Part shown: positions 1,790 through 64,000 of the stretch, piece after piece | Position numbering within the stretch: position 1 is the first letter of the stretch | Layout of the letters: each line of letters starts with the position of its first letter | Assembly (NCBI GenBank): GCA_030295235.1 | Contig: AP026132.1 | Span: forward strand, 1,115,501 to 1,179,500 | Source of the DNA: Fistulifera solaris | Lineage: Eukaryota; Bacillariophyta; Bacillariophyceae; Naviculales; Stauroneidaceae | Direction of reading: 5' to 3' | DNA length: 64,000 nt | Notes under the pieces: model-generated | The model's input: only the letters and a program-made list of their open reading frames with translations | Databases searched by the model: none | What the model was told of the DNA's origin: nothing | Program-made: the position numbers and the translations under genes

Positions 1790-3720
1790 GCCGCGAACAG
1801 GAAGGCAAGACAGAAATTCTGTGGTGGTCCAGAAAATCTGGACCAGCTTGTTGATCTTACCAAAACGCTGCGGACATTCCAGAAATATAGGTACAGGGTA
1901 CCAGGTATTTAGGATCTTGACGACGGCCAGTAGCAGTGAGCGTTCCAGAGCTTCTGAACACGTCGTTTTCGATCAGAACGAAAGAAAGTGCTTGTTCCAA
2001 ATATTCTGGAAAAGTTACTTCTGTCATACAGAATATCTGTAGTGGTCCAGAAATTCTGGACCATTTTATTGGATCCTACCGAAATGCTGTGCACGCTCCA
2101 ATAATTTCAAAGAGGGTATTTGGGGTCCTAACCAAAGCCGGTGAGCGTTCCAGAGCCTTTGAACACGGTGTTTTCGATCAGAGCGAAAGAAAGTACTAAT
2201 TCCAGATATTCTGGAAAAGTTTCTTTTGTCATACAGAATTTCTGTAGTTGTCCAGAAATTCTGGACCAGTTTTTGGATCCTACCGAAATGCTGTGCACGT
2301 TCCAAACAATTTCAGAGAAGGTGTTTGGTATCATAACGAAAGCTGGGGAGCGTTTTAAAGCTTCTGAACACGTTGTTCTTGATCAGAACGAAAGAAAGTG
2401 CTAATTCCAGATATTCTGGAAAAGTTTCTTTTGTCATACAGAATTTCTGTAGTGGTCCAGAAATTCTGGACCAGTTTTTGGATCCTACCGAAATGCTGTG
2501 CACGCTCCAATAATTTCAAAGAGGGTATTTGGGATCGTAACGAAAGCCGGTAAGCGTTTTAAAGCTTCTGAACACGTTGTTCTTGATCAGAACGAAAGAA
2601 AGTGCATGTTCCAGATATTCTGGTGTTTGGGATCGTAACGAAAGCCGGTGAGCGTTTTAAAGCTTCTGAACATGGTGTTTTCGATCAGAACGAAAGAAAG
2701 TGCATGTTCCAGATATTCTGGAAAAGTTTCTTTTGTCATACAGAATTTCTGTAGTTGTCCAGAAATTCTGGACCAGTTTTTGGATCCTACCGAAATGCTG
2801 TGCACGTTCCAAACAATTTCAGAGAAGGTGTTTGGTATCATAACGAAAGCTGGGGAGCGTTCCAGAGCTTCTGAACACGTTGTTCTTGATCAGAACGAAA
2901 GAAAGTGCTAATTCCAGATATTCTGGAAAAGTTTCTTTTGTCATACAGAATTTCTGTAGCTGTCCAGAAATTCTGGACCAGTTTTTGGATCCTACCGAAA
3001 TGCTGTGCACGTTCCAAACAATTTCAGAAAAGGTATTTGGGATCGTAACGAAAGCCGGTGAGCGTTTTAAAGCTTCTGAACATGGTGTTTTCGATCAGAA
3101 CGAAAGAAAGTGCTAATTCCAGATATTCTGGAAAAGTTACTTCTGTCATACAGAATATCTGTAGTGGTCCAGAAATTCTGGACCATTTTATTGGATCCTA
3201 CCGAAATGCTGTGCACGCTCCAATAATTTCAAAGAGGGTATTTGGGGTCCTAACCAAAGCCGGTGAGCGTTCCAGAGCCTTTGAACACGGTGTTTTCGAT
3301 CAGAGCGAAAGAAAGTACTAATTCCAGATATTCTGGAAAAGTTTCTTTTGTCATACAGAATTTCTGTAGTTGTCCAGAAATTCTGGACCAGTTTTTGGAT
3401 CCTACCGAAATGCTGTGCACGTTCCAAACAATTTCAGAGAAGGTGTTTGGTATCATAACGAAAGCTGGGGAGCGTTCCATAGCTTCTGAACACGTTGTTC
3501 TTGATCAGAACGAAAGAAAGTGCACGTTCCAGATATTCTGGAAATGTTACTTCTGTCATACAGAATTTCTGTAGTGGTCCAGAAATTCTGGACCAGTTTT
3601 TGGATCCTACCGAAGTGCTGTGCACGCTCAATAACAATTCAGAGAGAAGGTGTTTGGGATCGTAACGAAAGCCAGTGAGCGTTCCGGAGCACTCTTGAAT
3701 AGCTGCTTTGGGTCAGACAG
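1790..3720. repeat. Array A: 205-bp tandem repeat with nested palindromes
   Basis: The landmark GTCCAGAAATTCTGGAC recurs at 2045, 2250, 2455, 2757, 2962, 3167, 3372 and 3577. Steps are exactly 205 bases, except one step of 302 (205+97, a partial extra copy). A degenerate first copy (GTCCAGAAAATCTGGAC) lies at 1827. Each unit carries several short palindromes in order: GTTCCAGAGCTTCTGAAC, TTCCAGATATTCTGGAA, ACAGAATTTCTGT and GTCCAGAAATTCTGGAC, followed by GGATCCTACCGAAATGC. Segments near 2016-2340 and 3138-3460 are nearly identical at an offset of 1122 (5x205+97), so a block of units was itself duplicated. The many 60-100 codon frames on both strands here are by-products of the repeat. From 3721 to 4070 the spacer is A/T-rich and I see nothing definite. 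Confidence 0.93.
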
Positions 3721-4070
3721 AAATTTAATTGACGTTCCAGTAAATCTGGAACCATCTATTATAGAACGACATTTAAAAGTTGTTCGGGGTTAGGCTTTAG
3801 CACAGAGCAACCAAAATCAGTCGGATGTCAAATTTGCATTACGAGGGGACTTGTTTATCAGCAATAACTACGGTAGTATAGATAAGTCGGGAGACGAGCG
3901 TTAAAAAAGAAAAAAAAACAATTCTGTTTCAGAGTAATTAGTGACGAGAGCAATTCAGATCGTCCTCGATTTAACCCTTCTTTACATTGTTTACAAAGTC
4001 CTCATCGCTCATCGAATAAAGACATTTCAGTTGATGTCATACAATGGACTCCGGGGTACAACTAGCTCAA

Positions 4071-4718
4071 CTAGCTGCTACCATTGTTTCGCTGCAAATG
4101 TTTCTTGTGCATCGTAATTTGCAGTCGTTTCGCTTCGTCGGGACGTATCTTGGCACCATTGTATCGACTGCGAGCTCCGGATGATTTGCGGTGATAAAAC
4201 TCCATCGCATCCGTTTCTCCTATTATATCATCGTCGTCTTCGTCTATTTTTCCCAATGACAGTAAATCACCGGTACTTTTGGCGCACCGTTGAATGGGTT
4301 CGACGACAAATTTCGGCTTAAAACGGAACGGCCGCAGCGTTGGCTGCAATTTCTCTTGTTGTGTCGTTGGTTGACTTTTCGTATCACTCGTCTTTTGCAA
4401 AATGGCATCGCGAAACGAAAGCGTCGACGACGCGACGGACCAGACCGACCGCGGCCCCGCCACCAGATCATAACTCGAGTCGTCATGACATTTCAGACAA
4501 GATTCTTCCTCGGGCACCGATTCCAAAATATCGTAGCGACTCAAATCAGGTGTTGAAAACGAGGAACTCAAAGATCGCGGTCGTCTCGGCACTTCAATCA
4601 TCACTGGCGGTTCTGACGATGATTCGGGCTCATCGGAGGCAATCAATTCCCAGTCGTCTGTGGATGCGTTGGTGTTCAGTGTCGGCCACTCTTCTTCTGT
4701 AGCAGTCATTTCTCCCAT
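4071..4718 (-). CDS. Orphan Ser/Asp-rich protein, probably diatom-specific
   Basis: An open frame of 215 residues starts at ATG 4718 (MGEMTATEEEWPTL); the frame stays open a little upstream but without an ATG. The N-terminal half is acidic and Ser/Pro-rich. A central motif SVASSTLSFRDAIL is flanked by low-complexity sequence, then comes a basic segment RPFRFKPKFVVEPIQRCAKS and an acidic run DEDDDDIIGETDAMEFYHRKSSG. The tail is strongly basic (RLQITMHKKHLQRN). No membrane span or signal peptide is visible. Codon structure and biased composition support coding. The SFRDA-type motif occurs in uncharacterised diatom proteins as far as I recall, but no function can be given. It is divergent from the C2-domain gene at 5140. 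Confidence 0.65.
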   Translation of the reverse strand: MGEMTATEEEWPTLNTNASTDDWELIASDEPESSSEPPVMIEVPRRPRSLSSSFSTPDLSRYDILESVPEEESCLKCHDDSSYDLVAGPRSVWSVASSTLSFRDAILQKTSDTKSQPTTQQEKLQPTLRPFRFKPKFVVEPIQRCAKSTGDLLSLGKIDEDDDDIIGETDAMEFYHRKSSGARSRYNGAKIRPDEAKRLQITMHKKHLQRNNGSS

Positions 4719-5139
4719 CTTGACGCGATCATGGACTTGTTGCAATACGTAAAGTTAGAATAGAATGATGAGTTTACTTGCGCTTATTATTTGAACGATG
4801 GGTAACAAAAAGTTTCATTCGCGAACCTCTCTTTGTTTTCGCTGGCGTCGAACAAAGACACGTTCTCGGAGAATGTAGTACGGAGTATCCAATAGAATGT
4901 AGTATCACCTCAAAGGTGGTCCGGCGTGACGCGACAAAACTTATTTAGGCCGGGAATGACGTAGCGACACGGACTACATAGCGTGAAACACTGTCACGTT
5001 TTCGTTTCGTCGCTTTTTCTTCGTTCGAAAAACTCACCATGGCCGTCGTTGCGTTGCTGTTTGATAGGACGGCATAATCTTCTCTTCCTCAACCATAAGT
5101 TAAAAGTTATTTCGTCTTTGTAACGCAAATTCGATAAGA
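4719..5139. promoter_or_regulatory. Divergent promoter region
   Basis: A spacer of 421 bases between two divergently transcribed genes (orphan protein, minus; C2 protein, plus). It contains a short direct repeat AGAATGTAGTA near 4870 and 4895. No other structure was recognised. Confidence 0.4.
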
Positions 5140-6479
5140 ATGCAAGAACCATCATCAACTTACGAAGCAACACAAGCACGACAACGAACACAGGCGCAAC
5201 CCGACAAGGTGCACTGGGACGGAGAAGTATCGTTTCGAGATCATCCGTATCGACAATTGCATCATCAAAGAGGGATTATTGGAGCATTTCGTATTCGGTT
5301 ATTGGAAGCATCAAATCTCAAACGATCGTACTGGTCTCCTTTGGCCCTTGGCCCGGTTAAATTGTTGGGTTTGAGCAAGGCACACGGCAATGTGTCCTCC
5401 TTTTGTTCGTTTTCCTTAGATACAACGTCCGCGTACGGCAATGACAGTCTAACGCCGTCCACCTCGCATCGCAAACCAGCACCGACGTCCAAACCTCCAC
5501 CGAAACGCCCCAGCGTGGTGTCACCCGTCATTCCGGAAAACAACAATCCGGTCTGGGATAATTTTCAATTTGATTTTCCGCTTAGAAAAGGATTCATGAC
5601 ACAGGATGGGATGCGGTTGCTATTGACCGTTCGAGTCAATGAAGATTCGACTCCAGTCGAAACCCTCATGCCCGGTGGATCCTCGGATGGTGACGCGCGA
5701 TTGCTTGGAATGGGCAGTCTCGACATTACCGATCTTTGTTTGGGGTGTACTAGCGATGGCGATCCGGTACCGGGGGTGATCGATGCGTGGATTCCCATTT
5801 CTTTGCCGAACAAAGATCGTATGCCGGTGACAAATGAAAACGAGGACTCGAATGTAACAGCATCCTCCGAGTCATCGACGGGGATGGTTCGCGTCTTGGT
5901 ATCGTACGGACCGTCCGGATTGGAACCACACGAAAAAGACATTGTAGCCTTGGAAGCCTTTGCCCGTCGCAATCCATCCGCATCGTCCTGTCGACCCTTC
6001 TCTCGCCTCTCCGGCCACTGACGGTCGTCGAACGGCGAGGCGCTTTTCTGCTCTGTGAATACAGTCTTTCCGATCATGGACGGAAAAAGGGGTTCGTTCG
6101 CTTGCATCGGAACTCGGTCTTTGTCATTGAACGACAAAATCTGGCGGATGCGGCACACAATTTAGCACTCTTACCATTCGATGTCATGATGTCAACGCCC
6201 ATTGGACGAGCGAGTGCGCAAGCGTTGGGTCCCGTGGGGGCCGCCGGCAAAGAACTATTGATGCCGGCACTGCTTTCTTTGAAATTGCTGTGGGTGGCGG
6301 CACGTACGACGACGTTGGCGGGTCTCTCCGGAGCACAAGCCTTGGGCTCGACGTTGTGGCAAGAAGGATCAACGAGTTTGACGGCGAGTCATCACAGCGA
6401 TAGTAATTTGTCGCTGCGAGGTCATGATCATTATCGAAACCATCGCGATGGCGCTCTTTCCCAATTCGCTCAACTTTAA
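5140..6479 (+). CDS. C2-domain protein (frame break near 5997)
   Basis: Starts at ATG 5140 (MQEPSSTYEA). Residues about 45-240 look like a C2-type lipid or calcium binding domain: a first strand GAFRIRLLEASNL, a long insertion with Ser/Pro-rich sequence, then NNPVWDNFQFDFPL (the classic NPxWNE-like C2 segment), MRLLLTVRVNED and LGMGSLDITDL. A C-terminal domain follows in another frame: LTVVERRGAFLLCEYSL, GRKKGFVRLHRNSVFVIERQN, then an Ala/Leu-rich tail ending at 6479. The frames join if one C is added to CCC at 5995-5997, giving 446 residues. The sequence on both sides is well formed, so I read this as one gene with a one-base deletion, not two genes. Likely role: membrane-associated adaptor; the substrate is unknown. 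Confidence 0.8.
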
Positions 6480-17629: not shown

Positions 17630-18935
17630 AACACCGATTCAGGATTTCTGGAACGTGCACAAAATCATTGTGCGACGCAAAGCACCCTCACCAGAATATC
17701 TGGAAGACGCACAGAATGTCTGCGCGACCCAAACCACATATTCCAAAATTTCTGGAATGCACAAAATCATTGTTTGACGGATCATTGTTTGACGGAGAGC
17801 CCCGATCCCGAAATGTCTGAATCGTGCGCAGAATCACTGTTCCAGCCCCATTTACCTAATTAAATATTCATGGAAGCCTCGCAGAATTTCGGCTCGACAC
17901 AATACACCGAGTCCAGATTTTCTGGACCTATCGCAGAATTTCTGTGTGACCGAAATACTGATTCCAGAATTTCTGGAATGAGGGAAAATGTTATCTGAAA
18001 CCCAAACACCGATCCCAGAGTTTCTGGAACATGCACAATATCATTGTGCGACGCAGAGCATCTTATCCAAAGTATCTGGAAGTCTCACAGAATAGCTGCA
18101 CGACCCAAAAGACCAATTCCAGAATTTCTGGAAACTGTGCCAGCCCCATTAACCCAATCCAAAATACTTGGAATCCACGCAGAATTTCGGTTAGACACAA
18201 TACACCGAGTCCAGATTTTCTGGACCTATCGCAGAATTTCTGTGTGACCGAAATACTGATTCCAGAATTTCTGGAATGAGGGAAAATGTTATCTGAAACC
18301 CAAACACCGATCCCAGAGTTTCTGGAACGTGCACAATATCATTGTGCGACGCAGAGCATCTTATCCAAAGTATCTGGAAGTCTCACAGAATTGCTGCAAG
18401 ACCCAAAAGACCGATTCCAGAATTTCTGGAAATTGCACAAAATCATTGTTTGACGGAGAGCCCCGATCCCGAAATGTCTGAATCGTGCACAGAATCACTG
18501 TTCCAGCCCCATTTACCTAATTTTAAATATTCATGGAAGCCTCGCAGAATTTCGGCTCGACACAATACACCGAGTCCAGATTTTCTGGACCTATCGCAGA
18601 ATTTCTGTGTGACCGAAACACTGATTCCAGAATTTCTGGAATGATGGAAAATGTTATCTAAAACCCAAACACCGATCCCAGAGTTTCTGGAACGTGCACA
18701 ATATCATTGTGCGACGCAGAGCATCTTATCCAAAATATCTGGAAGTCTCACAGAATTGCTGCAAGACCCAAAAGACCGATTCCAGAATTTCTGGAAATTG
18801 CACAAAATCATTGTTTGACGGAGAGCCCCGATCCCGAAATGTCTGAATCGTGCACAGAATCACTGTTCCAGCCCCATTTACCTAATTTTAAATATTCATG
18901 GAAGCCTCGCAGAATTTCGGTTCGACACAATACAA
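17630..18935. repeat. Array B: 298/365-bp tandem repeat built from CCAGAATTTCTGG-type palindromes
   Basis: The landmark GTCCAGATTTTCTGGAC lies at 17911, 18209 and 18574 (steps of 298 and 365). The landmark GATCCCAGAGTTTCTGGAA lies at 18011, 18309 and 18674 (same steps). A further partial unit ends near 18935. Inside each unit, palindromes recur roughly every 30-50 bases: TTCCAGAATTTCTGGAA, CAGAATTTCTG, CCAAAGTATCTGG, and AATCATTGTTTGACGG linkers. The 67-base difference between units is insertion of an extra sub-block carrying the Cys-Leu-Thr-Glu-Ser coding-like segment; the long plus-strand frames (18031-19117) are side effects. The palindrome core is shared with array A, 15 kb away, but the linkers are not. 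Flanking spacers 17235-17629 and 18936-19284 hold no gene. Confidence 0.9.
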
Positions 18936-19142
18936 AAATAAATGTTCGGCTTCACAGTCTCATAAATAATAATCAAGATCTCAAGCTAAGCCGTCTTCGT
19001 CCCGCAGATAACAGTGCGACAGAGTATGTACAGTTTAGGTTACAGTATTACGAATTTGAATTTTTATTATTCAACGTCGCCACTTTCTTTACACAAGAGT
19101 GGACCGTTGAACGTTGAAGGCTCACAATTTCGAAAACGAAGA

Positions 19143-21171: not shown

Positions 21172-21539
21172 GATTGTAAACAGCGAAGAGCAAAACAATC
21201 GATAATTCAATTCTATCAATATGTTCTATGAAAGCAAAGCGGGCAGCGGTGATAGCGAAAGCTTAATAAAATGAATAAACCGAATGATGCGTATGAAGTG
21301 ATATCTATTGCAATACTTTGACACACAGCAAACTCATCTTCAAATAATAATCTATTTATAATGGGCCGAGGCTTGTGAGTGTTTGTGTGTGTTTTCCGGT
21401 TTTGCTTGGTCGAGATTTCCTCTTGTTCCGCTTCATAGTCTAAACACCACTCAGTCTAATTTTCTGGATATGTGAAGTGAAATTCCGGACGACGACTGAC
21501 TCCTCCAAGATGATTGTTTTTACTGTCGTCAAAAGTGTA

Positions 21540-22000
21540 AAACAATCATCTTATCCACGACTGCACTTCAGTCATGAATCCATATTCATTCTTGCAACAT
21601 TGCAGCCTACAGTTCGTTCGTTCAGCAAAATATGTTGTAATAGAAAAGTTTTAGCATCATTTGCATTACACATCATTAATTTTCATGTCTAAGAGCCTTG
21701 CGAAACGGTGTCTTCAGTATTTACTATGGTCCAAAGTGTTTTGTCCGTATTTCGCCACGACTGCATTTCAGTCATGAATCAATAAAAAATTCCAGCGACA
21801 ATGCTGCCCACAAATCGTTCTTTAGCAAAGTATCTTGATCTTCATTTGTTAGTTCAATGAAATAGTCTCATAGCAGCGTTTGCATTACACGTCATTATAT
21901 CTTACGTCGAATAGCCTTGCGAAACGTTGACTTCCGTATTTACTATGGACCCAAAGTGATAGTTTACGGAGACCACGACTGTAATTCAGTCATGAGTCGT
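21540..22000. repeat. Family C tandem repeat with GACTGCATTTCAGTC palindrome, locus 1
   Basis: The palindrome GACTGCATTTCAGTC followed by ATGAATC occurs at 21559 (one mismatch), 21759 and 21977 (diverged centre), about 200-218 bases apart. Interiors share GCATTACACGTCATTAT, CCTTGCGAAACG and ATTTACTATGG..CCAAAGTG blocks. The same unit recurs at 47.2-47.7 kb and begins again at 63958. The rest of the 21172-22456 spacer holds no gene. Confidence 0.85.
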
Positions 22001-22029
22001 CATGAATCCATACGTATACGTGCGATTAC

Positions 22030-22095
22030 AGCACACTTCCAGATTTTCTGGGTATGACAAAACACCACACTGCCAGAGTTTCTGGGTAATTGTGT
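22030..22095. repeat. Isolated CCAG-type palindrome pair
   Basis: Two CCAGATTTTCTGGG / CCAGAGTTTCTGGG motifs about 38 bases apart. They match the core palindrome of arrays A and B, and lie upstream of the lipase gene. Confidence 0.65.
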
Positions 22096-40236: not shown

Positions 40237-40503
40237 GACTATGAAACAACAAGTAGTAGCTTTGTCGTTCCAGGTTTGAAACTTGTTTTGACCAAAGAGT
40301 AGTAACCAGTACTTGCGCCGTAAACTTACACAATGACCTATAGTAGAATCCAACGGAAACAAATCATTATTATTTTGTCACTATAGAACCACAAGTAGTT
40401 ACTTTGTCGCTCCATGTTTGAAACTAGTTTTGACTCATGAGTTACAACCCATATTTGCGCCTTAAACCAACATAAATAGCTATAGTAATTTCCCAACGGA
40501 AAA
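40237..40503. repeat. Family F: two tandem copies of a 142-bp unit
   Basis: The blocks ACAAGTAGT, CTTTGTCG, GTTTGAAACTnGTTTTGAC, TTGCGCC and CTATAGTA...CCAACGG recur at an offset of 142-143 bases (for example CTTTGTCG at 40261 and 40403). They fill the divergent promoter between sulfotransferase 2 and Vps8. Each copy contains an imperfect palindrome around TTGAAACTAGTTTTGA. Confidence 0.8.
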
Positions 40504-43600: not shown

Positions 43601-45708
43601 TGACTTTCTTGACTAGCAAGAAATATCTGTCGTCCTCTGTAAGAAAGGGCGAGCAGGAATATGCTGGTCATCGAGCTTTTCACTATCCGTACATGCGCTT
43701 GCTCCTGTTGGTAGATGCACGGTCAACTCTTGAAGCCGTTACTCTTGCTTTGAATGCAGAAGATAGTCAAGTTTTGGCATTTGCGAGTATTGACGAGGGA
43801 TGGGAAAGTGGTGCGCAGAACGCGAAGAGTCTCCCCGGAAGCCAAGAGATAGTCCAAATACTAGCTTCGATAATTCAACCTGGTTCCCAGCCGCCTGGTA
43901 TGACACCGACAACATACCGAATAGCGACAAACGCATTCCTTGATTTCACTTCGGAATACATTTTGAAGCGCGCCGTTAGAGTTGATTCAGAAATCACATA
44001 CATGATACTTACACGGGTATGCGATTCGTTTGAAGACGCCACTGATTCTGGAATGCGACGGAGCACTCAAAAACAGGTCATGGATCTTGTTACTTCTCTA
44101 CCAAGAGATGGCTATGACCCAGATACCGTCCTTGCTATCATCAATAAATCAGGCATGCATCGCGCTGGTCTACTGCTACATCAACAAGTCGCTTCTACAT
44201 GGATTGACTCGTCTCGACCAGATATTATGGAGTTGAGATGTCGCCACTTCGAAAGTGCGATCGAATGTTACGTTGGAGATGATGATCCCGAATTTAGGGT
44301 CGAAGTCTACAGCTATATCAAAAAGGAGTGTTCGGGGGTAACTTCTGATAAGGATTCCGAAAGCCAACGTGGACTTCACAAGTCTGTTTTTTCGAAACTA
44401 CCTGAACTTTGTAAGCTCAGTCCTCAGAAAACGGCTAGTTTGGTCGCGGATCTTTTCGTCGATGACATTGATCAAATTGTGATGTCCTTGGAAGGGAACG
44501 ACGAAGTGCAATTCAGTTTTCTACACGTAGTTGCATCTGGTGAATTGGCGCAACTAGACCCAGCGGCGGCCTCTATTTTGATACTAAGCTTGGAGCACTA
44601 CCATACTTACTTGGCGCTCATGGCAAAACTCCACCCAGAAATGGTGTACGACTATCTTGTCGCGAGTGACAATTACCGTGCGACAGAGTGCCTGGAGCTA
44701 TGTGAAAAATATGACATCCCTGATGCGTCCGTTTATCTTTTGGAGCGAAGCGACAAAGTTAATGAAGCCATCAGACTTGGTCTACAGACACTTGAGAGTA
44801 AAATGATGGAAATGAAACGAACTGTTCGTGGGATGGAGATAGATTCATTTCGTACAGAATACAAATCGCAACGACGATCAAGCCGACGCGACAAGCAGGA
44901 TGCCTTTCCCAATCGCCACGACAGAACACAGGAGAGTTTGAAAAGGATGCTAACGGTTATCTTGGATGTCTGCGAAAGAAAATCAAGTGAACATGGATCT
45001 AAACTATGGTTTACGGTTCTCGATCGCCTCATCACCGCCAAAGGATTTCTGCGGCTTGCGAAAGAACAGCCGCAACATGCTAAAATCATGGCAAACGTTC
45101 TTAGTGATTTATTACGACAAACTATGCAGAGAATGGTATCTAGCGTACCCTTGTTGGATCTTGTTCAAAAAGTAACAACCGGCCATTCGGGCAGCGACCT
45201 TGGCGAGCTGAGAGAGATGTTAGAAAGCCTTCTCACTGCTTATAATTTCGAACTCAGAGTTTTCGAGGACGTAACAACTGTATTCAAGCAAGATGTCCAC
45301 GAGGCGAAAAACCAGAACCGCGGGCTTTGTGTCTGCGGATCGCGAGTTGATAGCATTCTCAATATTGACCTTAAGGCAGAATCGGCCCATGAAGTATCTC
45401 AGATTCTGAAGTCAAACAGAGATTCCATACTGCAAGTCGGGGCAACCAGTAATGCGTGCTTTGTGGTCGGCGACCGTGACTTTTACAACCGAAAGATAGA
45501 GAACGGCTTTTCGAAGGCGCTTACTAAACTCCGCTCTAGAAGGGCTGGTCCCCTTCGCGACTGCGGAGGACGACATTCTCGTTTGAATTTCATGACGAAT
45601 GAAGAGCAGAGCGTTCGACTAGGGGAGCCGGATCCGATCGTGATGGGTCCAAGACCCGTCAAGGCACTAGGAGCGGCCCAACACCATGGACGGCTGATAA
45701 CGTTTTGA
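40660..45708 (+). CDS. VPS8: Vps8, CORVET tethering complex subunit
   Basis: An intronless frame of 1682 residues from ATG 40660 (MDLHSILNASDSS); the frame is open another 44 codons upstream, but the later Met begins the conserved acidic start. An acidic Ser/Asp/Glu region (about 1-130, with a run of Glu) precedes a WD40 propeller: LPTCLAFNSKFIAVGTQRG, LSGHASGIVVVWDIIRG, VHDTHISPISSARFMSD, and later strands to about 750. The rest is alpha-solenoid (SDNYRATECLELCEKYDIPDASVYLLERS is a clathrin-repeat-like stretch). Vps8 binds Rab5-type GTPases and tethers early endosomes. The C-terminal RING finger of other Vps8 proteins is not obvious: only CVCG and scattered Cys are seen near 1590-1640. Confidence 0.93.
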   Translation: MDLHSILNASDSSDDDSPDDTDHNGVVDLEQILCESDDEGSDEDSYDLGRSRITADQILDTDAVELNRLKGESSATHSTSDWAILQSILMSDDEEGDNDDAEEEEEEEEWLKSSTTIKNNNLPFTKYESPVVKKSLLEDDSESDNLPANLPNTLLPPLAVATIQDDGKKTDRSPLRQNVTSSSSLFSGDNAINPTTKREKAQQRSEDSKSEEISIKAQAYSTSYEQKLLKSGQREMVSPLRVKRRLKQKIELTPRGKEPKKATRIAALSVTRFGSSGLVENKTLTGVSTSLEKHSKEGAKVLCGLPTCLAFNSKFIAVGTQRGIVLVYDLFEVLRQRLGATYDDNAGAMRAGPVTSIDLSFQGETVLSGHASGIVVVWDIIRGIVLRAVHDTHISPISSARFMSDWKVVTVDVGGIVNKISFTKNMIWSNYSVDTECLLDGTAGQILAMNVLPPYATIKTQQVRPDPLTDILKKLTLIALSSERSSFAVAVEPQINVLHRWARPPADKTDDVSINTGNNPVPSEFLPCLSWGWGLIAGGGNTVMPILARAWGCCLQLLCASFPSIDDGSLVESNSIHWPAFGVHREVDTGKPVVAVEWLNDRSLMYLTLTNEFTLVDTVMMTLLEKLDFSGLKLVYAEFALSRSSRTPGTDDENGQVSATTFQNSIRYSDDRLLVLCKNELKCISVVGARKRISSLEHDGEWLEALALALDYYDSAVVSLEDRRRDPSRKRDLSRHPDLFRARGEDDEEEWLSKLLVRYLNLAVENAPDVAHISTCGRVNNNGGNDLSRSHYQMLAGVCVEFCSVTRKPELLFGPVFQRFQSAGFSAIFFDVLEPYVLNDKIPYISAEAMSYFVEHCKMTKGISTVERCLLHMDCSIMDFDTILSLLRRNAMYTALFCIYNNGLDDFVSPLEIVLDKVFDEADAGSALLKRREDGVPQTDFEKLGYKALLYLKCCFMGKTFPREDELLTDEKCRKVRQDLLTFLTSKKYLSSSVRKGEQEYAGHRAFHYPYMRLLLLVDARSTLEAVTLALNAEDSQVLAFASIDEGWESGAQNAKSLPGSQEIVQILASIIQPGSQPPGMTPTTYRIATNAFLDFTSEYILKRAVRVDSEITYMILTRVCDSFEDATDSGMRRSTQKQVMDLVTSLPRDGYDPDTVLAIINKSGMHRAGLLLHQQVASTWIDSSRPDIMELRCRHFESAIECYVGDDDPEFRVEVYSYIKKECSGVTSDKDSESQRGLHKSVFSKLPELCKLSPQKTASLVADLFVDDIDQIVMSLEGNDEVQFSFLHVVASGELAQLDPAAASILILSLEHYHTYLALMAKLHPEMVYDYLVASDNYRATECLELCEKYDIPDASVYLLERSDKVNEAIRLGLQTLESKMMEMKRTVRGMEIDSFRTEYKSQRRSSRRDKQDAFPNRHDRTQESLKRMLTVILDVCERKSSEHGSKLWFTVLDRLITAKGFLRLAKEQPQHAKIMANVLSDLLRQTMQRMVSSVPLLDLVQKVTTGHSGSDLGELREMLESLLTAYNFELRVFEDVTTVFKQDVHEAKNQNRGLCVCGSRVDSILNIDLKAESAHEVSQILKSNRDSILQVGATSNACFVVGDRDFYNRKIENGFSKALTKLRSRRAGPLRDCGGRHSRLNFMTNEEQSVRLGEPDPIVMGPRPVKALGAAQHHGRLITF

Positions 45709-45710
45709 AA

Positions 45711-45835
45711 GTACTCACGCTCACCGTATAATGTCTAGAATAGACACCAATTACCGCTAGAGTTAAAGTGCTCACGCTCACTGTATAATGTCTCGAATAG
45801 ACACCGAAGTTCCGCTAGAGTTAAAGTGTATCATT
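45711..45835 (+). repeat. Family E: tandem 57-bp duplication with TGTCTnGAATAGACA palindrome
   Basis: CTCACGCTCAC.GTATAATGTCT.GAATAGACACC followed by CCGCTAGAGTTAAAGTG is present twice; the palindrome starts at 45732 and 45789. It directly follows the VPS8 stop, so it is probably within the 3' UTR. Confidence 0.9.
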
Positions 45836-45878
45836 AATTGTTTTACAGATGAGAAAAGCATCATAGTCTAATCATTCA

Positions 45879-47199: not shown

Positions 47200-47700
47200 A
47201 AGATAAAACTTATGTACTATGGACCAAAGTGTTATCCGTATTCTCCACGACTGCATTTCAGTCATGATTGCTTTGGCTTTTGAGCGACAGTGCTGCCTAC
47301 AATTCGTTCAATCATCACATAACTTGAGTTCAAGTTGTCATTGTTGCAATGAAATAGCCGTTAGCAGCGTTTGTATTACACGTGATTATATTCTACGTCG
47401 AAGAACCTTGCGAAACATTGCCTTCCTAATTTTTTTACTATCGACTATATAGTCCTGTCCGTATTTCGCCACGACTGCATTTCAGTCATAAATCAATACT
47501 CTTTTGAGCTTTGAGCGACAATGCTGCCTACAATTCGTCCGTTCAGCAATAAATTTTGAGCTCCTTGTCGGTGTTGCAATGCAATAGTCCTTAGCAGCGT
47601 TTTCATTTCCGGTCATTATGTTTTAAGTCGACGAGCTTTGCGAAACGTTGTCTTCCGAATATTTACTATAGACCCAAAGTGATGGTTCTATGAGACCGCG
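47200..47700. repeat. Family C repeat, locus 2
   Basis: GACTGCATTTCAGTC at 47249 and 47473 (224 apart), with the same interior blocks as at 21.5-22.0 kb (GACAnTGCTGCCTACAATTCGT, TAGCAGCGTTTnCATT, CGTTGTCTTCCGnATATTTACTATnGACCCAAAGTG). It fills most of the divergent promoter between RAD51C and the NOG1-like gene, and ends near the start of the latter's leader. Confidence 0.87.
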
Positions 47701-47929
47701 ACTGAACGAGTCCCGAGGCCTGTGTCATTACCTCGCCTGTCCGTCGCACAAAGCAAAGCAACCAACCGCAAAAAAAGCCGCAAAGAAAAACGCAAAGAAA
47801 ACGAACGTCCCTTTACCAACAAAAGGTAGCAACATTGTTTCCTTTGACGTGTCCTATTCGGATATTATTTCTCTGAATAAAAAGAAAAAGAAAGAAACGT
47901 GCTGTTCGCTTGCGCGTAAACGAACGAAT

Positions 47930-51691: not shown

Positions 51692-51815
51692 AACGTGGAA
51701 AAGCACACCCCCACATTTTCTGGATACGTGAAAAAACCACACATTTTCTGGAGATGAAAATACCACCCGCCCACATTTTCTATAGACGACCTCCTCGTGA
51801 AAAAGCACACGCCCC
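51692..51815 (+). repeat. Minisatellite of about 30 bp in a divergent promoter
   Basis: CACATTTTCT begins at 51712, 51740 and 51772. Each is preceded by a GTGnAAAAnCACAC-type block (51695, 51728, near 51754, and again near 51798), giving about 3.5 imperfect copies. The element sits between the Erv-PDI gene and the THOC6-like gene, about 140-260 bases upstream of the latter's ATG. The rest of the 51489-51951 spacer shows nothing. Confidence 0.75.
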
Positions 51816-55582: not shown

Positions 55583-55690
55583 TTTGTCTACGTGCATTTC
55601 ACGTAGGCCCCAGTAGGGAAATTTATCGACAGAGGGGAACCCGGATTTTGTATAATTCGACACCATCCGCATTACGGTACCGGTATTTTT
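55583..55690 (+). repeat. Family D repeat, solo truncated copy
   Basis: CTACGTGCATTTCACGTAG at 55588, then TAGGGAAATTTATCGACAGAG and GGAACCCGGAT, as in the tandem copies at 57.5-58.0 kb. A shorter remnant (TTCACGTAGGCTCCGTAGG) lies at 56127. Confidence 0.85.
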
Positions 55691-55692
55691 AT

Positions 55693-55830: not shown

Positions 55831-55876
55831 GACACACACACGGACACAGCGCGCTATTATAAATAGATTAGGAAAG

Positions 55877-55945
55877 GACGTTAAAATTCTGCCTCTCACT
55901 ACAAGTTTCTACGTAAAGCCTACGGAGAGGCAGAATTTTAACGTC
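55877..55945. repeat. 21-bp perfect inverted repeat (hairpin, 27-base loop)
   Basis: Left arm 55877-55897 (GACGTTAAAATTCTGCCTCTC) pairs perfectly with 55925-55945. The loop (55898-55924) contains TTTCTACGTAAAGCCTACG, resembling the family D palindrome. The rest of 55946-56280 has only a family D remnant near 56117-56160. Confidence 0.95.
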
Positions 55946-56280
55946 GTTTCTAGGGTCTAGTACAAATGGACAATGTTCCAAGTATGCTTGGCAATGTAAT
56001 TAAACCGTGAAGCAACATCAATCCGTAGCAGTCACTGTACTCAAGACGTGAACAATTAAGGAGTAATTCTAAGTCGAAACGGTAAAAAGAGTGAAGATAC
56101 AACGCTTTTGATGGTTACGTCGAATTCACGTAGGCTCCGTAGGAATTTTATCGATGTTGGTAGCATCCGCAAATCAACGAGTTCGACCTTTTACCCGGTA
56201 AATTGAATGGATTTCTAGACGCAGTCAAAATAGCTTGTTGTATAGTCCTTTTGTGAATTTCAAAACTGAATAGATACTTC

Positions 56281-57399: not shown

Positions 57400-57540
57400 G
57401 TCGACTCCTCGTAATCTCTCCTTGCTCGCAGCTAAGGATGAAATATACATTGTCATTTTGATGATAAGATGGAAAACAACACTCAACAATGATGATGTGT
57501 CGTCGCGTTGAAACAGAACGAAAGCATTCGCATCGGGTTC

Positions 57541-58050
57541 GAAAGTCTACACGTGTTTCACGTAGCTCTCGTATGGAAATTTATCGACAGAGGGGACACC
57601 CGGATATTGTTCATTTTCAACCCGTCAATTTATTGGGTCAAAAACGCTCAAACGTCAACATTACCGGGTCCAACAGCGTGGTTACATATTGCAGAACAAT
57701 GAACGTGATCGGTTTGAAAGCAAAAAAGTAGAGGACAAGAGTAATGCAACGCTTCGAAAGTCTACAAGTGTTTCACGTAGCTCTCGTAGGGAAATGTATC
57801 GACAGAGGGGACACCCGGATATTGTTCATTTTCAACCCGTCAATTTATTGGGTCAAAAACGCTCAAACGTCAACATTACCTGGTCCAACAGCGTGGTTAC
57901 ATATCGCAGAATAATAAATGTGATCGGTTTGAAAGCAAAAAAGTAGAGGACAAGAGTAATGCAACGCTTCGAAAGTCTACACGTGTTTCACGTAGCTCTC
58001 GTGGGGAAATTTATCGACAGAGGGAATCCCGGATTTCAAGAGCAGAGAAG
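57541..58050 (+). repeat. Family D tandem array, 215-bp unit, three copies
   Basis: CTAC(A)..GTGTTTCACGTAG starts at 57547, 57762 and 57977 (215 apart each). Unit 3 is truncated at about 58035. Each full unit holds CCCGTCAATTTATTGGGTC, CGCTCAAACGTCAACATTACC, CAGCGTGGTTACATAT and GATCGGTTTGAAAGCAAAAAAG. It occupies the upstream region of the GT92 gene. Confidence 0.95.
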
Positions 58051-58222
58051 TCACAGCGACGGACAGACAATGACTGCGGTCATTCTTGTCATATTTGCGA
58101 CGAAAAAGTTTTTTTTTCCAACTCTTTCAATTGCAAAGCAACGTCCTCGCTTCTTCCATTTTCATATCATATACTTACTTTCTGCACATCTTTTTCTGCT
58201 TTTCTACTTGTTACTCGGTGGA

Positions 58223-60873
58223 ATGATAGAAGGCACCGCAAGAGCAAGGCGCACGCGCTCTTTGGGGCTCCCGTTGTCGATAATCGTTTTTGTCGGCGGT
58301 ATCTTGCTCGGCATGTACCTTTTGACAACAGTATCTCTCATTCAAGTCACTTCTAATAGCTTCACAGACACCATACCAATCAATCATTTCATTGAGGAAT
58401 CGAAAGGCGTTCGGAAAGTTACCGAAGAGCCTTTACGACGACCCGAAAGGGGCGCCAGTAGTCACAGACCGCCCACGACAACATCAATAATAGCGGATTC
58501 TGCAACAATGAAGCAAACCATACAGCCACCGATGAATACTTCGATTACAATACACTCCGAAAAATCAAATGTTAAAGACAGTTGCCCCATCATTGACGAG
58601 AAATACAAGCAAATTCCTCTGTCGCCATTATTCCCATTTGATAAATTAAAAGCTGAAGCCATTTTACAGCAACAGGGCGCCGCCGCACTATGGCGACCAA
58701 TAACAGCCTACATTGAACCTCCTCTCGGCGATACAGTCCCCGGTACGGGAAATCGTGGGGATTTAGAGCCGAAATCGAAAGATAAAGGGACACCGCCCGA
58801 TTTTGTCATTCCTCTGCCTCTTCGACGCCACACACCTGCCGATTTACAAATGTACACATACCCGGCGGTACGAACGTGTCACGACTTGCCGGGGAAATTC
58901 CCAGTCGATCGAGGTCTCGAATACGACGAAATGGGGAATCTTATTGTATGGAATGTGGGAAACGATCCCATGCCGGACGATTTCCCCCAACAGGAGGCAC
59001 CCTTTTGTCCTGTAGAAGCCGATCCGTTCTTGCCTTGGATTCACGACTACTTCCCCTCACAAGACGGGACAAGAATTGAGTTCATTGCGCAAAATAAGCG
59101 TCGGTGTCGGACCGGAAAGAACTTTGATGCTGAAGTCAATCGATTGGTACCACAAATAACATTGATGCAGCCCATCTCCGTGCAGCGACTGAGCGACCAG
59201 AAAGCGCAAGAAAAAGCACCTGAATTATGGAATCCAGGAGATGATAGTCAGAACACTCCGCGTTATCGTCTTGCTCCACACGAAGAGTCGGATCCCGATG
59301 GACAATATTCACGATTCATTTGTCGTTTCCATGCCACGGATTGGAACAATCCTTCACAAACAAAGATAATAGGGGAGACCCTCAGTGCGTACCCATTCAA
59401 CTATGAGTTTGCCGCGTACCGTAAAGGAAGCACCGATGTCATACTGCTTACACCCGGCGGGAAAGATACGACCCTCTTCTGGACGAGTAACTTCCGTTTT
59501 CACTGTCCTGTCCCTGTCGAATTGCAACCCGCGGTTGCCAAGGGTTTGACCGTGCTGAGTGATGGCTCGCCTTCCTTGTACGTGGATGTAGTTCCTATTC
59601 GTACAAGTGTTCGTTACAATGAGATTTATATGACCGAGAACTTGATCGGGCCGCGTGATCAATGGGAACTACCCGGCTTTGATCCCTACACACGATGGGG
59701 AGAAAAGAATGTTTTACCTCGAGTGGAAGCCAGTGGACGATGGGCCAATCTTCCCATCTGCTCTCCTCCTGTTTTGACCGACGAGTGTACCGAAAAAGAC
59801 AACAAGAATAAAAGATCCATGGAAGTTTTAGTGCCGCAAGTTGAAAAGATGCCTGAGAAGCCCCATGTCTTGTCGGCATGTCTTTGGGCCTCAGCCGAAT
59901 TCAAAACACGCGGGAAATCTAAAGGAGCGTCGACAGATACACAGGATCGACTGCAAGAATGGATCGAATTTCATTTGATGGTCGGGTTCGACCACATCTA
60001 TGTCTTTGATAACAGTGGAGCCCACACGAACGAAACAAGCCTTGCGCCAGTGCTTGAGCCGTATGGCAATAAGGTGTCACGCATTGACTGGCCAAGTATT
60101 GTTTGCAACAATAACGTGCCCGCCCATGATTCCTGCGGTGAAAGGTCAAGTCAATATGCTGCTGAAAATGCCTGTCGGACTCGCTACGCACCGTTCACCA
60201 AATGGATAGCATCCTTCGACACCGATGAGTATCTAGTGCCCATGGGAAACTATACCAGCTTGAAAGATGTTTTAAAAGACGCCGAAACCATGGGTACAAA
60301 TATTCTTTCGTTCAGATCATCTCGAGGTCGATTGCGAACGGACAAAAGTGAAGAGGTGAACAACGATGCACGTGAGAAGATGCCGAATGCTACATTTCTT
60401 GAAGCCTACAACTGTGACAGTGCTGGGTCACCGAAACCATCATGGGGCGATCGCGCAAGGAAACAAGTCTACAGATCCGACTACGTACCGTATCACTTTG
60501 TGCATTACTCGACGGTCACAAAGGGCTTTTAGAAACGTATGAGGACGTTCAGGAAAAAGGAATCAGCAACTGGAGACGCAAATACAGCGAGCGATCTCCA
60601 TCCGAAAGAGTCACAGATGAAATAGACGAGGCCGTCATGGTGCACACTAAAACATTAGGAGCGGATATGACAGGAGGTTACAAGCAACGGTGTCGCCACG
60701 ATCATCAGAAGAAATGGCAAGCTTGCTGGGTAGCTTATCCGTATCCAGATGACGCGAATGCAAAGGCCTATGATGAACAAGGGATGGAGTTCAACTGTCA
60801 AATCAACAAAAGAGTCGATCAGTTCTGGGTTCCGCGCTTGCGAGAGGCTATGGCAAAACGGAAGCAAGGTTAG
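58223..60873 (+). CDS. GT92-family glycosyltransferase (frame break near 60528)
   Basis: ATG 58223 (MIEGTARARRTRSLG); 883 residues once one T is added to TTTT at 60527-60530. A type II anchor LPLSIIVFVGGILLGMYLLTTV lies near 15-40, then a long stem and an N-terminal domain of unknown fold (about 120-520). The GT92 (DUF23) catalytic domain follows: HVLSACLWASAEFKTRGKS, EWIEFHLMVGFDHIYVFDNSG, ASFDTDEYLVPMGNYTSL with the metal-binding DxD (DTDEY), and YVPYHFVHYSTVTKG. GT92 enzymes add galactose or other sugars to glycans in the Golgi. The extension after the break (LLETYEDVQEKGISNWRRKY) is the natural continuation. The ORF runs upstream into the repeat array, but the Met before the anchor is the likely start. 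Confidence 0.9.
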
Positions 60874-61040
60874 GAGTTACGTTTTGGTGGCTATTCGTTT
60901 CGGTAGCTCCTTGACTTGACTGAACGATCCTTCGCGTCACCCTCACGCTCAGCGATAAGAAAACCTATTCAGACAAAGCGTTGTATCATAAGTTTGTACT
61001 ATAGCTAATCAAACATGTATTATACTCCGTAATTAACGCT

Positions 61041-62591
61041 CTATTCTTGTTTCTGGCGACTGATCCTTTGTAGACTTCGTCGCAAGTCGGTCTCAGTAAA
61101 ATATGCCATGGACAAGGTAATGACACCTGCGGTGACCCCCACTGCCACATGGTTAAAAGCCAATTGAATCCAGTCTCCACTCCCAACAGCGTGCGCCCCA
61201 GTAACAAATATTTCTCTAGATATTCGGGTCGAGATGAAGCACCCAAGGAAACAGAGCAGGACGGCTGGTTGTGGGAACATGCCACGTAGCAACTGTGCGG
61301 CGACACGCCAAGGTGCCGTTTCGGTGCCCCATCGATTGGCGAAAAAGTGAGTAGCGAAATGTAAGGAATAAAGGGACCGCAGCATCATCGAAAAGCAATT
61401 TGCAGCCACCAACCCGATGGTTCCATACATGGATACCGCCACGGGTACAATAAGCGCAAATACCCCAGCAACCACAGTATGAGCGACGCCCAATCGTCCC
61501 ATATCACTGGCATTCTCTGCAACGCCATAAACAAAAGCTTCTGTACTTCCATTCCATGCTAAAAATGCAGTGTAAACACAAAAGGCGCTCAAAACCGATG
61601 ATGCTTGTGGATTGTCACTCCATCGTGCTCCGCCTACCAGCTGTAACAGGAGAGCAGTATAGTGCACCGCTAATGTACTATAAATAAACCCCAAGTACAA
61701 AACGAGCTTTACCACGAAGCAGTAGGACTGTCGTAGTTCATCCTGTTGGGGCGATTGGCTCGGTACTACGTGTTGCCGACTCCAAAGCAATCTTGCATTT
61801 TCTTCAATGGGTTGTAAGAGCACTCGTGCAGCTAATCCACCGTAGGCACTGCCCATGGCATAAACACCTTGATCGTAGCTTTCAGCGAGAGCAACCAAAG
61901 TGATCCGATCTCCTTCCGTCAAAAGATGTTTGAAAAACCCCTGTATCGTGAAGACCATCGTCATGTATAACGTTTGGCGATCCAAAGCCTTCCACTGGGG
62001 CCGCGTAACAGCCGGTGCTAGTTTGTAACAGAGATAAAGTGTATACACAGCAGCGTAGACGATTTGGGCACAACCGAATGCCAGTACTTGTGGCTGTGAC
62101 TTGAAGCGCGTGAGAAGAATCACCAGAGTGATTGTTTTGGTTACCGTCGCCAACCCTTCAGCCGATGCCTTGACAGAGACGTGCAATTGGCGAAGCGCAT
62201 GAAGTACTAGTGGCTCAGCGAGACTTTCGATGAAGGAAGCACAACAATACATTAATCCAGCCCGACGAAAGGCATCGTTTTCCGGTGCAGCGTTGTAATG
62301 TACGTGTTGGATGCCAGCGAGTACAGCGAAACAAGCGGTCGTAGGTATAGTCAAGTAAGCAACATTCCAGTCACTGGTTGGTCGCATTAAACTCAATCGA
62401 AAACCTTCCCGACAAACAAAATTGATCATAGAATAAAGCAACTCCAGCTGAATTGAAGCTTGCCCTAAAATGGTCGGATCAACCCATCGCAACGAGATTT
62501 GCGTGCAACCAAACGAGATCAAGCGGAGCAGAAACGTAGCAACAGTGCCCGCTAAAGCGGTTCGTGTCGTATTTGATGTAAAGCTTGCCAT
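61041..62591 (-). CDS. RFT1: RFT1, lipid-linked oligosaccharide translocation protein
   Basis: A single intact frame of 516 residues, the family length. Polytopic with about 12-14 hydrophobic segments. RFT1 wording: RLISFGCTQISLRWVDPTILGQASIQLELL, FVCREGFRLSLMRP, TLYMTMVFTIQGFFKHLLTEGDRITLV, YDQGVYAMGSAYGGLAARVLLQPIEENARLLWSR, and AFLAWNGSTEAFVYGVAE. RFT1 is an ER membrane protein of the N-glycosylation pathway, genetically tied to flipping Man5GlcNAc2-PP-dolichol, though direct flippase activity is disputed. It is convergent with the GT92 gene, 167 bases apart. Confidence 0.97.
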   Translation of the reverse strand: MASFTSNTTRTALAGTVATFLLRLISFGCTQISLRWVDPTILGQASIQLELLYSMINFVCREGFRLSLMRPTSDWNVAYLTIPTTACFAVLAGIQHVHYNAAPENDAFRRAGLMYCCASFIESLAEPLVLHALRQLHVSVKASAEGLATVTKTITLVILLTRFKSQPQVLAFGCAQIVYAAVYTLYLCYKLAPAVTRPQWKALDRQTLYMTMVFTIQGFFKHLLTEGDRITLVALAESYDQGVYAMGSAYGGLAARVLLQPIEENARLLWSRQHVVPSQSPQQDELRQSYCFVVKLVLYLGFIYSTLAVHYTALLLQLVGGARWSDNPQASSVLSAFCVYTAFLAWNGSTEAFVYGVAENASDMGRLGVAHTVVAGVFALIVPVAVSMYGTIGLVAANCFSMMLRSLYSLHFATHFFANRWGTETAPWRVAAQLLRGMFPQPAVLLCFLGCFISTRISREIFVTGAHAVGSGDWIQLAFNHVAVGVTAGVITLSMAYFTETDLRRSLQRISRQKQE

Positions 62592-63183
62592 AGACAGGAT
62601 GTATTTGATGCATTTGTCTGTTATTCAATGTCTTTGGTTTCAATGCAAGGATCAAGCAAGGATGCCATGAAGTCGCGAGATCATCATCGAAAAAGTGCGG
62701 TCAGTCGTCAGTCAGCGTTGTCACGGTTAATACGTCAGTCAAAGAAGGCTGATGATCTGATGATGTGCCATTGGGCCATTGGCCCTTGGCACGATACAAA
62801 TAATAGAGATGACGTGGCGAGGATCAGTATCTAAGGTTTACAGTCATAACTTCAAGAATGCGGTAGAACATTTCGCAATGCATTTTCTATTTTAAGTTCA
62901 GTATTTAGCAATAAGTACTCCTGTTGGGAAAACTTCAACTTCAACCCCGGATTTTATGCCTGAGATTCTGAGATTTATCATTTAGAGAAGGTCCGCGAAT
63001 TTGTAACACGCAGCGAAGAACGCAAATGACAAAAACACCGGAAACTATACATCCAAAATGTAGAACAAGCCTTCCCTCTCGCCACCGCCATCAAACATCA
63101 AGCACAGCAGTTTTCTTCATTCATTCCATTTCGAGTTCGCATTGCTCAAAAGAGAAAAAGATTGTCGGCATTTACAAAAGACC
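62592..63183. promoter_or_regulatory. Divergent promoter region, RFT1 and orphan gene
   Basis: 592 bases. No repeat family, RNA gene or convincing frame recognised. Confidence 0.35.
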
Positions 63184-63666
63184 ATGTGCAGCATGCGACC
63201 ATGTCCTTCCAGAAAAGCACCCAAACTTCGTCCAACTGCACTCATGTTCTCACAGATCCGCGATGTAACGTCGCTGTCACCGCCCAGATTTCCAAAGCGT
63301 GTACCCAGCATGGAAACCAGCCTCTGTACACTTGCCAAAGACGAATCGCACGGAAAATCGAAATCTCAGCCATGTCTTGCCGGAAAGAATGCTTCATTTG
63401 CTTCGTTAAAAGAGAAAAGCTGCAAGTTAGCTGACTGTTACATCGGTTTTTCAGAGGACGAAAGCATCATGTCCGATCTATCTGACGACGACGACGATGA
63501 CAATGACCTCTCATATGTGAGCCATTCGGCCTATGCTCCAGTGACAGTAGAGCAGGTTCTTCTAGAAAGTCTTGGATCATCGCGATGGCTTCCAAGTGAC
63601 TGTTCAAGTGATAGTCGCAGTCGAGATGCGCCGAAGACACCGTGTCGAACGACAGAGAATGTTTGA
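63184..63666 (+). CDS. Small orphan protein with acidic patch
   Basis: 160 residues from ATG 63184 (MCSMRPCPSRKAPKLRPTALM). A basic N-terminal third and a Ser/Lys middle (KSKSQPCLAGKNASFASLKEKS) precede a run of Asp (DLSDDDDDDNDLSY). The end is APVTVEQVLLESLGSSRWLPSD followed by a Ser/Arg tail. The segment VEQVLLESLGSSRW could be a short helix. No domain, membrane span or targeting signal recognised. The biased composition and the absence of a competing frame make coding plausible, not certain. Confidence 0.45.
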   Translation: MCSMRPCPSRKAPKLRPTALMFSQIRDVTSLSPPRFPKRVPSMETSLCTLAKDESHGKSKSQPCLAGKNASFASLKEKSCKLADCYIGFSEDESIMSDLSDDDDDDNDLSYVSHSAYAPVTVEQVLLESLGSSRWLPSDCSSDSRSRDAPKTPCRTTENV

Positions 63667-64000
63667 AATAATCGAGATGCCTGGATGTACACACATCCCA
63701 TTCAGAGGTGAACCATTTCCGGTGTCGCAACCCTGCCCACTGGTGTTAAATATTACATGTAAATAAAATAGACAGGAAAAACAAACGTCTCGATGAATAC
63801 CTGGTATAAAATGATGATGATGTAACAACAATGGTGGACGAGGAAGAAAATTTTGCGTTTTTTTTGTGAAATGATTTTTGACAAATATCTTTAGCCCTAA
63901 CAATTTCCTTTCTGTTTACAAGGTACTATAACTCAAAGTGTAGATTACTTTTTTTACGACTGCATTCCAGTCATGAATCAACAGTTGCGACCTATTTTTG
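63667..64000. other. Spacer with start of family C repeat, locus 3
   Basis: GACTGCATTCCAGTC followed by ATGAATC starts at 63958, preceded by ACTCAAAGTG (63931), the same order as at the other family C loci. The element runs off the window edge. No gene seen. Confidence 0.7.

What the first reader, a model, noticed from the sequence alone, without database searches (positions are those of the whole stretch)
1790..63985. At least six unrelated intergenic repeat families share one architecture: a short odd-spaced palindrome with an A/T core per unit
The families are CCAGAATTTCTGG (A, B, 22.03 kb, 51.7 kb), GACTGCATTTCAGTC (C), CTACGTGCATTTCACGTAG (D), TGTCTnGAATAGACA (E) and TTGAAACTAGTTTTGA (F). 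Units of A, C and D are all 200-224 bases long. The arms differ completely, yet layout and length agree. This could be a class of non-coding elements whose arms co-evolve with different DNA-binding proteins, or a family of short non-autonomous elements with palindromic ends. I know of no described diatom element that fits, but cannot search.
Basis: partly seen in the sequence, partly recalled or inferred. Interest (0 to 1): 0.78.

Follow-up and report, generated by a model that had tools for sequence, protein, structure and literature searches.

The report
Regularly spaced palindromic elements in diatom
A hybrid-type diatom genome carries thousands of short palindromic DNA elements, mostly between its genes; three types share nearly the same central letters, and two of them, when repeated, sit about 200 to 245 letters apart even where the DNA between them is not recognisably related, which looks like docking sites for proteins placed roughly one per nucleosome, although no function was tested.

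Summary
The core observation is real, but six families become three. (1) CCAGA-N3-TCTGG (A, B and the 22.03 kb site are one class; 51.7 kb is a degenerate relative): 4309 exact copies genome-wide, reversed control 30. (2) GACTG-N5-CAGTC (C): 1743, control 27. (3) CTACGTG-N5-CACGTAG (D): 105, control 0. E and F are local duplications whose single homeologous copies are not palindromic.

New here: all three classes share a centre near G-N-ATTT-C. C and D palindromes sit in conserved cores of about 65-90 bp. Core-to-core distance is narrow: 30 of 30 neighbouring C pairs under 400 bp (of the 100 sites listed) are 201-246 bp apart; 21 of 21 D pairs (of 50 listed) are 200-224 bp. For C, spacers of three loci are not recognisably related while the distance persists. 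The genome is made of homeologous contig pairs; the window's A and D units match one partner set only (39 of 39 loci listed; 23 of 23). One D array persists at an orthologous promoter; one C array does not.

Best reading: sites for dimeric DNA-binding proteins, about one nucleosome plus linker apart, multiplied locally. Function is untested; a functionless satellite or mobile family is the main rival.

The parts
1810..3749 (-). Array A: 205-bp units with clusters of CCAGA-N3-TCTGG and ACAGAATTTCTGT palindromes, gaps of 141-142 bp between clusters
   Evidence: at least 210 related matches genome-wide
17639..18940 (+). Array B: same palindromic cluster as A in opposite orientation, 298/365-bp units
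21516..22010 (+). C array, three cores 200 and 218 bp apart, in a head-to-head intergenic region; absent at the homeologous site
22030..22090 (+). Two CCAGA-class palindromes 34 bp apart; related array kept in the homeolog on C16
35709..36010 (-). D array, two cores 212 bp apart, upstream of the TPR gene (36.4 kb +); a diverged D array lies at the homeologous promoter
47210..47716 (+). C array, two full cores 224 bp apart and a last core that keeps only the left arm
51693..51781 (+). Degenerate 28-34-bp relative of the CCAGA class
55585..55660 (+). Solitary D core with exact CTACGTGCATTTCACGTAG
56115..56150 (+). Degenerate D core
57538..58030 (+). D array: three cores and two spacers, 215-bp period, head-to-head intergenic region
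63922..63991 (+). Solitary C core
40276..40433 (+). Family F of the finding: two similar 16-mers, not a palindrome family
   Evidence: homeolog has one TTGAAACTTGTTTTGA
45708..45828 (+). Family E of the finding: local 57-bp tandem duplication between two convergent genes
   Evidence: homeolog has one TGTCTCGAATAGGCA

Best explanation
The arrays are elements, mostly between genes, built on binding sites for dimeric sequence-specific DNA-binding proteins. Each core holds a palindrome with one of three arm types around nearly one centre (G-N-ATTT-C). C and D cores are solitary or stand about 200-245 bp apart, roughly one nucleosome (147 bp) plus a bound core of 65-90 bp, so that bound proteins and nucleosomes could alternate. 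The window's C and D arrays begin and end with a core (n cores, n-1 spacers), as expected if unequal exchange between neighbouring cores multiplies the stretch between them. Units were homogenised separately in the two parental genomes of a hybrid-type diatom. Shown: enrichment, shared centre, narrow spacing, C spacers unrelated between loci, one orthologous D array, subgenome-specific units. Inferred: protein binding, nucleosome phasing, the route of multiplication, and any effect on transcription.
For: Counts against reversed controls. In 200 kb taken at a fixed coordinate, arms of at least 4 around G[ACG]ATTTC occur in 5 of 132 cases, 9.7 times chance, all five from the three classes. Searching with the C upstream block alone: at up to 2 substitutions 9 sites, GACTG intact at 15-19 bases in 9 of 9 and the whole palindrome within 2 mismatches in 7 of 9; random places 53 of 4000. 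Spacing: 30 of 30 C pairs under 400 bp in 201-246 bp, 16 clusters; 21 of 21 D pairs in 200-224 bp. C spacers of L023 (231-bp steps) and L021 (about 211) show no match to the window's spacers (z -0.6 to 2.8; a spacer-only model finds neither at E up to 10). D array at the homeologous TPR promoter with one exact palindrome in 60-64% similar surroundings.
Against: No binding, chromatin or expression data. C array absent at the one homeologous C site seen. CCAGA class breaks the spacing rule: 33-35, 50-60, 68, 104-110, 138-165 bp. Core/spacer G+C does not follow a nucleosome pattern. The upstream block was derived from copies chosen by their palindrome; at up to 3 and 4 substitutions only 10 of 15 and 13 of 26 sites have the palindrome within 2 mismatches. 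D spacers of L046 and the window may be distantly related: blastn runs through them at 59-64%. No clear preference for gene 5' ends.
Confidence: 0.42

Rival explanations
1. Short dispersed satellite or non-autonomous mobile families without host function: cores spread by an unknown route, expand into tandem arrays and are homogenised within each parental genome; the palindrome is a by-product or a site for the mobilising enzyme.
For: Hundreds to thousands of copies, presence/absence between homeologs, subgenome-specific units, identical centres within an array and different ones between arrays, two breaks of gene order lying at arrays.
Against: Arms kept while spacers turn over, same distance with unrelated C spacers, D array kept at an orthologous promoter, 52 of 68 C clusters on C1 hold a single exact palindrome.
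Confidence: 0.37
2. Chromatin-structure elements rather than gene regulators: boundaries, nucleosome-phasing arrays or replication origins, with the protein acting as a spacer or anchor.
For: Distance close to nucleosome plus core; C clusters on C1 about every 27 kb on average (68 over 1.85 Mb).
Against: No chromatin data; inter-cluster distances are irregular, coefficient of variation 0.82.
Confidence: 0.14
3. Recombination-site model: palindromes with fixed arms and variable 5-bp centre are recombinase sites, and arrays are joined units.
For: Variable centre between fixed arms; in 2 of 9 block-defined C sites homology stops after the left arm.
Against: Solitary cores are conserved on one long side only; centres are not random but near NATTT; no recombinase was looked for.
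Confidence: 0.05
4. Chance palindromes in ordinary local tandem duplications.
For: True of E and F.
Against: Counts against reversed controls for the three classes: 4309 v 30, 1743 v 27, 105 v 0.
Confidence: 0.02

Closest known systems
Conserved palindromic promoter motif ACACGTGC of low-iron genes in Thalassiosira oceanica and two other diatoms (PMC3491386, passages read)
   Same: Palindromic, in diatom promoters, authors suggest a dimeric factor; the window's D2 cores contain ACACGTG
   Different: 8 bp, single sites near -200, 45 gene models; here long cores, three arm classes, arrays with a narrow period, far more copies
Alpha satellite with CENP-B box (recalled)
   Same: A protein-binding motif once per nucleosome-scale repeat unit
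   Different: Centromeric megabase arrays with a non-palindromic box; here dispersed arrays of few units or solitary cores near genes
Heat shock element, nGAAnnTTCn (recalled)
   Same: GAA and TTC half-sites facing each other; HSF domains are many here (151 exon-level matches)
   Different: One base between half-sites in GAA-T-TTC instead of two, long specific arms, left half often GCA in class C
Repeated palindromes of viral latent origins such as the EBNA1 family of repeats (recalled)
   Same: Arrays of palindromes at about 30 bp, like the 33-35-bp CCAGA arrays
   Different: Here nuclear, dispersed, several periods, no such protein known
MITE-like elements (recalled)
   Same: Short, non-coding, dispersed, with inverted repeats
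   Different: Palindrome internal or at one edge, tandem arrays, no target-site duplication shown

Membership tests
Satellite / tandem repeat DNA | Head-to-tail non-coding units, more alike within than between arrays | tested here: met
   identical centres within arrays, different between arrays; but 52 of 68 C clusters on C1 hold one exact palindrome
Satellite / tandem repeat DNA | Long centromeric or subtelomeric arrays | tested here: not met
   short arrays dispersed among genes
MITE or other non-autonomous transposon | Terminal inverted repeats at both ends of the element | tested here: not met
   C and D cores have the palindrome inside or at one edge
MITE or other non-autonomous transposon | Target-site duplication at empty/occupied site pairs | tested here: inconclusive
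   one occupied/empty pair; flanks too diverged to judge by eye
Heat shock element | nGAAn units with 2-bp spacing between inverted half-sites (recalled) | tested here: not met
   GAA-N-TTC with one base, seen directly in the CCAGAATTTCTGG sites
Transcription-factor site arrays | Specific protein binding | not testable with these tools
   no binding data
Nucleosome-phasing elements | Positioned nucleosomes between sites in vivo | not testable with these tools
   no chromatin data; only distances
Structured RNA family | Match to an Rfam model | tested here: not met
   no match at gathering score in the window

The most novel reading that the evidence does not exclude
A phased palindromic site system: paralogous members of one expanded diatom DNA-binding family (HSF-type is a candidate) recognise one centre with different arms and bind sites set one nucleosome apart at thousands of places, mostly between genes; in this hybrid genome each parent brought its own homogenised set, so the two subgenomes could be read differently by the same proteins.
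Probability: 0.17. Interest if true: 0.82.

Novelty: new variant of a known kind. Interest (0 to 1): 0.55.

Why it matters
Thousands of precisely defined sites, three arm classes on one centre, and for class C a spacing that outlives the spacer sequence give direct, cheap tests: which protein binds, whether nucleosomes are phased, and whether parental sets of sites go with expression bias between homeologs. If the elements prove functionless, this is still a clear case of satellite-like families that stayed separate in two subgenomes of one nucleus.

Tried and rejected
Rejected: families E and F. A and B as separate families. A general excess of odd-spaced palindromes: in the 200-kb sample totals are near a first-order resampling of the same sequences (267 v 219 for 3-bp centres, 232 v 210 for 5-bp centres, arms of 5). 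Strict helical phasing: CCAGA spacings of 33-35, 50-60, 68 and 155-163 do not fit one period. Preference for gene 5' ends: of 13 non-coding stretches with C matches (up to 1 mismatch), 3 are head-to-head, 5 same-strand, 1 tail-to-tail (a weak match) and 4 at a sequence end. In that of 67 CCAGA, 1 of 19 C, 5 of 14 D5 and 6 of 11 D3 matches lie in called coding sequence; many are looser chance matches, and the L022 34-bp array was called coding by a gene finder trained on long ORFs that may include it. A/T-rich core against G+C-richer spacer: A 0.36 v 0.43, C 0.38 v 0.38, D 0.47 v 0.40, inconsistent. My first claim that D spacers of L046 are unrelated to the window's was withdrawn: local scores are low (z 1.0-2.8), but blastn runs through at 59-64% and a spacer-only model gives a weak hit next to them (E 0.015). 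An iterated C profile may be inflated by its own hits; one search repeats it without iteration. MAFFT of 460-bp C regions was uninformative. Nine paper searches listed no title about these elements; listings and starts of abstracts only, except passages of PMC5935921 and PMC3491386.
Full report
Setting. The window is C15:1115501-1179500 of a 51.7-Mb, 61-contig genome. Contigs come in pairs of similar length. The VPS8-like gene at 40.5-45.7 kb has a homeolog on C16 (three pieces, 80, 89 and 95% protein identity), and HSF-domain matches fall on paired contigs: C1/2, 3/4, 5/6, 9/10, 11/12, 13/14, 15/16, 19/20, 23/24, 25/26, then 30/31, 32/33, 34/35, 36/37, 38/39, 40/41, 42/43. I call the first of each pair the first partner; for C7/8, 17/18, 21/22 and 28/29 the pairing rests on order and, where seen, length. 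This fits an allodiploid such as Fistulifera solaris (42 homoeologous pairs, G+C about 45%; passages of PMC5935921); the species is an inference.

What is there. TRF and repeat search give A, B, C and D much as described. Pattern counts against shuffles confirm A/B, C and D and not E and F. In the homeolog E and F are single, non-palindromic copies, so both are local duplications in C15.

Genome scale. Exact counts, reversed pattern as control: CCAGANNNTCTGG 4309 v 30; GACTGNNNNNCAGTC 1743 v 27; CTACGTGNNNNNCACGTAG 105 v 0. Uniform-base expectations are 49, 49 and 0.2. The first 100 C sites, all on C1, form 68 clusters over 1.85 Mb: 52 single, 16 of two or more.

Common centre. Of the first 100 C centres 39 are NATTT or its complement, of the first 50 D centres 19, against about 1% for random 5-mers. 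For CCAGA, whose arms fix two of the five bases, it is 59 of 100, and the three free bases are 98% A/T. In 20 stretches of 10 kb taken at one fixed coordinate, arms of at least 4 around G[ACG]ATTTC occur in 5 of 132 cases (9.7 times chance), all in the three classes. Of nine other centres seven gave none; A[ACG]ATTTT gave 3 of 144, none of them of the three classes, and G[ACGT]AATTC gave 2 of 145, both class members.

Cores. The C core reads about TTTACTATAG-n-CCAAAGTGT, 15-19 bases, then CCACGACTG-N5-CAGTCATGAATC; the D core is about 80-90 bp with the palindrome inside (18 and 9 copies; profile). Copies were picked by their palindrome. To reduce that bias I searched with the C upstream block alone. 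At up to 2 substitutions: 9 sites, GACTG intact at 15-19 bases in 9, whole palindrome within 2 mismatches in 7. At up to 3 substitutions 10 of 15, at up to 4, 13 of 26. Random places: 53 of 4000. In the two worst of the 9 the left arm is intact and the right arm is gone.

Spacing. 30 of 30 neighbouring C pairs under 400 bp are 201-246 bp apart; two further gaps under 600 are 417 and 454. 21 of 21 D pairs under 1000 bp are 200-224. In A, clusters 63 bp wide are separated by 141-142 bp, with one shortened unit. The CCAGA class also has 33-35, 50-60, 68, 104-110 and 138-165 bp, so the rule is not general for it.

Spacers. The window's C spacers (21 and 47 kb) are related to each other. Those of L023 (231-bp steps) and L021 (about 211; its left core is degenerate and was placed by eye) show no relation to them or to each other: z -0.6 to 2.8, and a spacer-only model of the window finds neither at E up to 10, though it gives a partial weak match in L034. 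So for C at least three spacer lineages keep nearly the same distance, which inheritance of one unit does not explain. The number is small. For D, L046 spacers are too diverged for a local score but blastn runs through them at 59-64%, so relation cannot be excluded.

Subgenomes. The A search gave 210 matches; the 150 listed fall in 39 loci, all on first partners. The 86 D matches fall in 23 loci, all on first partners. C: 66 matches, 38 loci, 30 first and 8 second (loci recounted). A query from one subgenome favours that subgenome, so this shows unit specificity, not absence of palindromes elsewhere: an array on C16 hits both sets, and exact D palindromes are at 21 loci on C1+C3+C5 and 6 on C2+C4+C6 (p = 0.007). 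The broken-arm CCCAGAAAATATGGG (132 in all, control 0) has 91 of its first 100 places on even contigs, but by cluster 12 of 19 (counted by hand); the symmetric CCCAGAAAATCTGGG (216 in all, control 0) has 41 odd and 59 even of 100.

Orthologous sites. At the TPR promoter C16 carries a D array with one exact palindrome, one with two mismatches and one degraded copy seen by eye, in 60-64% similar surroundings. The gene on the other side differs there, so this is also a break in gene order. At the 21.2-22.4 kb head-to-head promoter C16 has a 34-38-bp CCAGA-type array related to pieces in C15, but no C array. Collinearity with C16 also stops just before the C array at 47.2 kb, and the next 2.5 kb of C16 has no match in the window. 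Two breaks at arrays is a lead only. Homeologous sites of A, B and D2 were not seen.

C and D meet. On C1 two of six exact D loci lie 40 and 81 bp from an exact C site, and in L029 a D core lies 168 bp from a C core.

Function. Protein binding is inferred from symmetry, arm conservation, centre and spacing. HSF domains are many (151 exon-level matches), and GAA-N-TTC resembles but does not meet the recalled heat shock element spacing; D arms contain ACGTG, which bZIP and bHLH proteins can bind (recalled). A palindromic promoter motif ACACGTGC of low-iron genes was reported in three diatoms (PMC3491386, passages). The nucleosome idea is arithmetic: 147 bp plus a 65-90-bp core gives 212-237 bp. 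A search for a diatom nucleosome repeat length gave only a listing.

Limits. About 298 kb of the genome could be read. Gene calls come from a simple hexamer model trained on long ORFs of the same sequences. On checking, the unrelated-spacer claim was narrowed to class C and the odds of the main readings were lowered slightly.

Noticed in passing
window 55871-55955; L034 5224-5386 (two tandem copies); L039 9738-9819: An 80-85-bp hairpin element with arms of about 20 bp around GTTAAAATTCTGCCTC, in both orientations, between two D cores in the window. Looks like a tiny fold-back element.
   Followed up: partly
window 35.7 kb and 47.1 kb against C16: Gene order between the homeologous contigs breaks at a D array and just before a C array; arrays might sit at or cause rearrangement breakpoints.
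   Followed up: partly
G000, whole genome: 151 exon-level matches to the HSF DNA-binding domain, many as pairs on homeologous contigs.
   Followed up: partly
L022 2521-3318 (C2); C4:1067367-1074858: 34-bp-period arrays carrying the broken-arm form CCCAGAAAATATGGG; on C4 three similar blocks about 3.3 kb apart suggest a larger repeat unit.
   Followed up: no
L027 8196-8899 (C7): A 78-bp tandem repeat, a multiple of three, perhaps a coding repeat.
   Followed up: no
L047 from about 2700 (C16): Sequence upstream of the acetyl-CoA transporter homeolog looks retrotransposon-like by eye; not searched.
   Followed up: no
window 21500-21555: A 14-bp perfect inverted repeat (AAGATGATTGTTTT / AAAACAATCATCTT) encloses the upstream block of the first C core only.
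   Followed up: no
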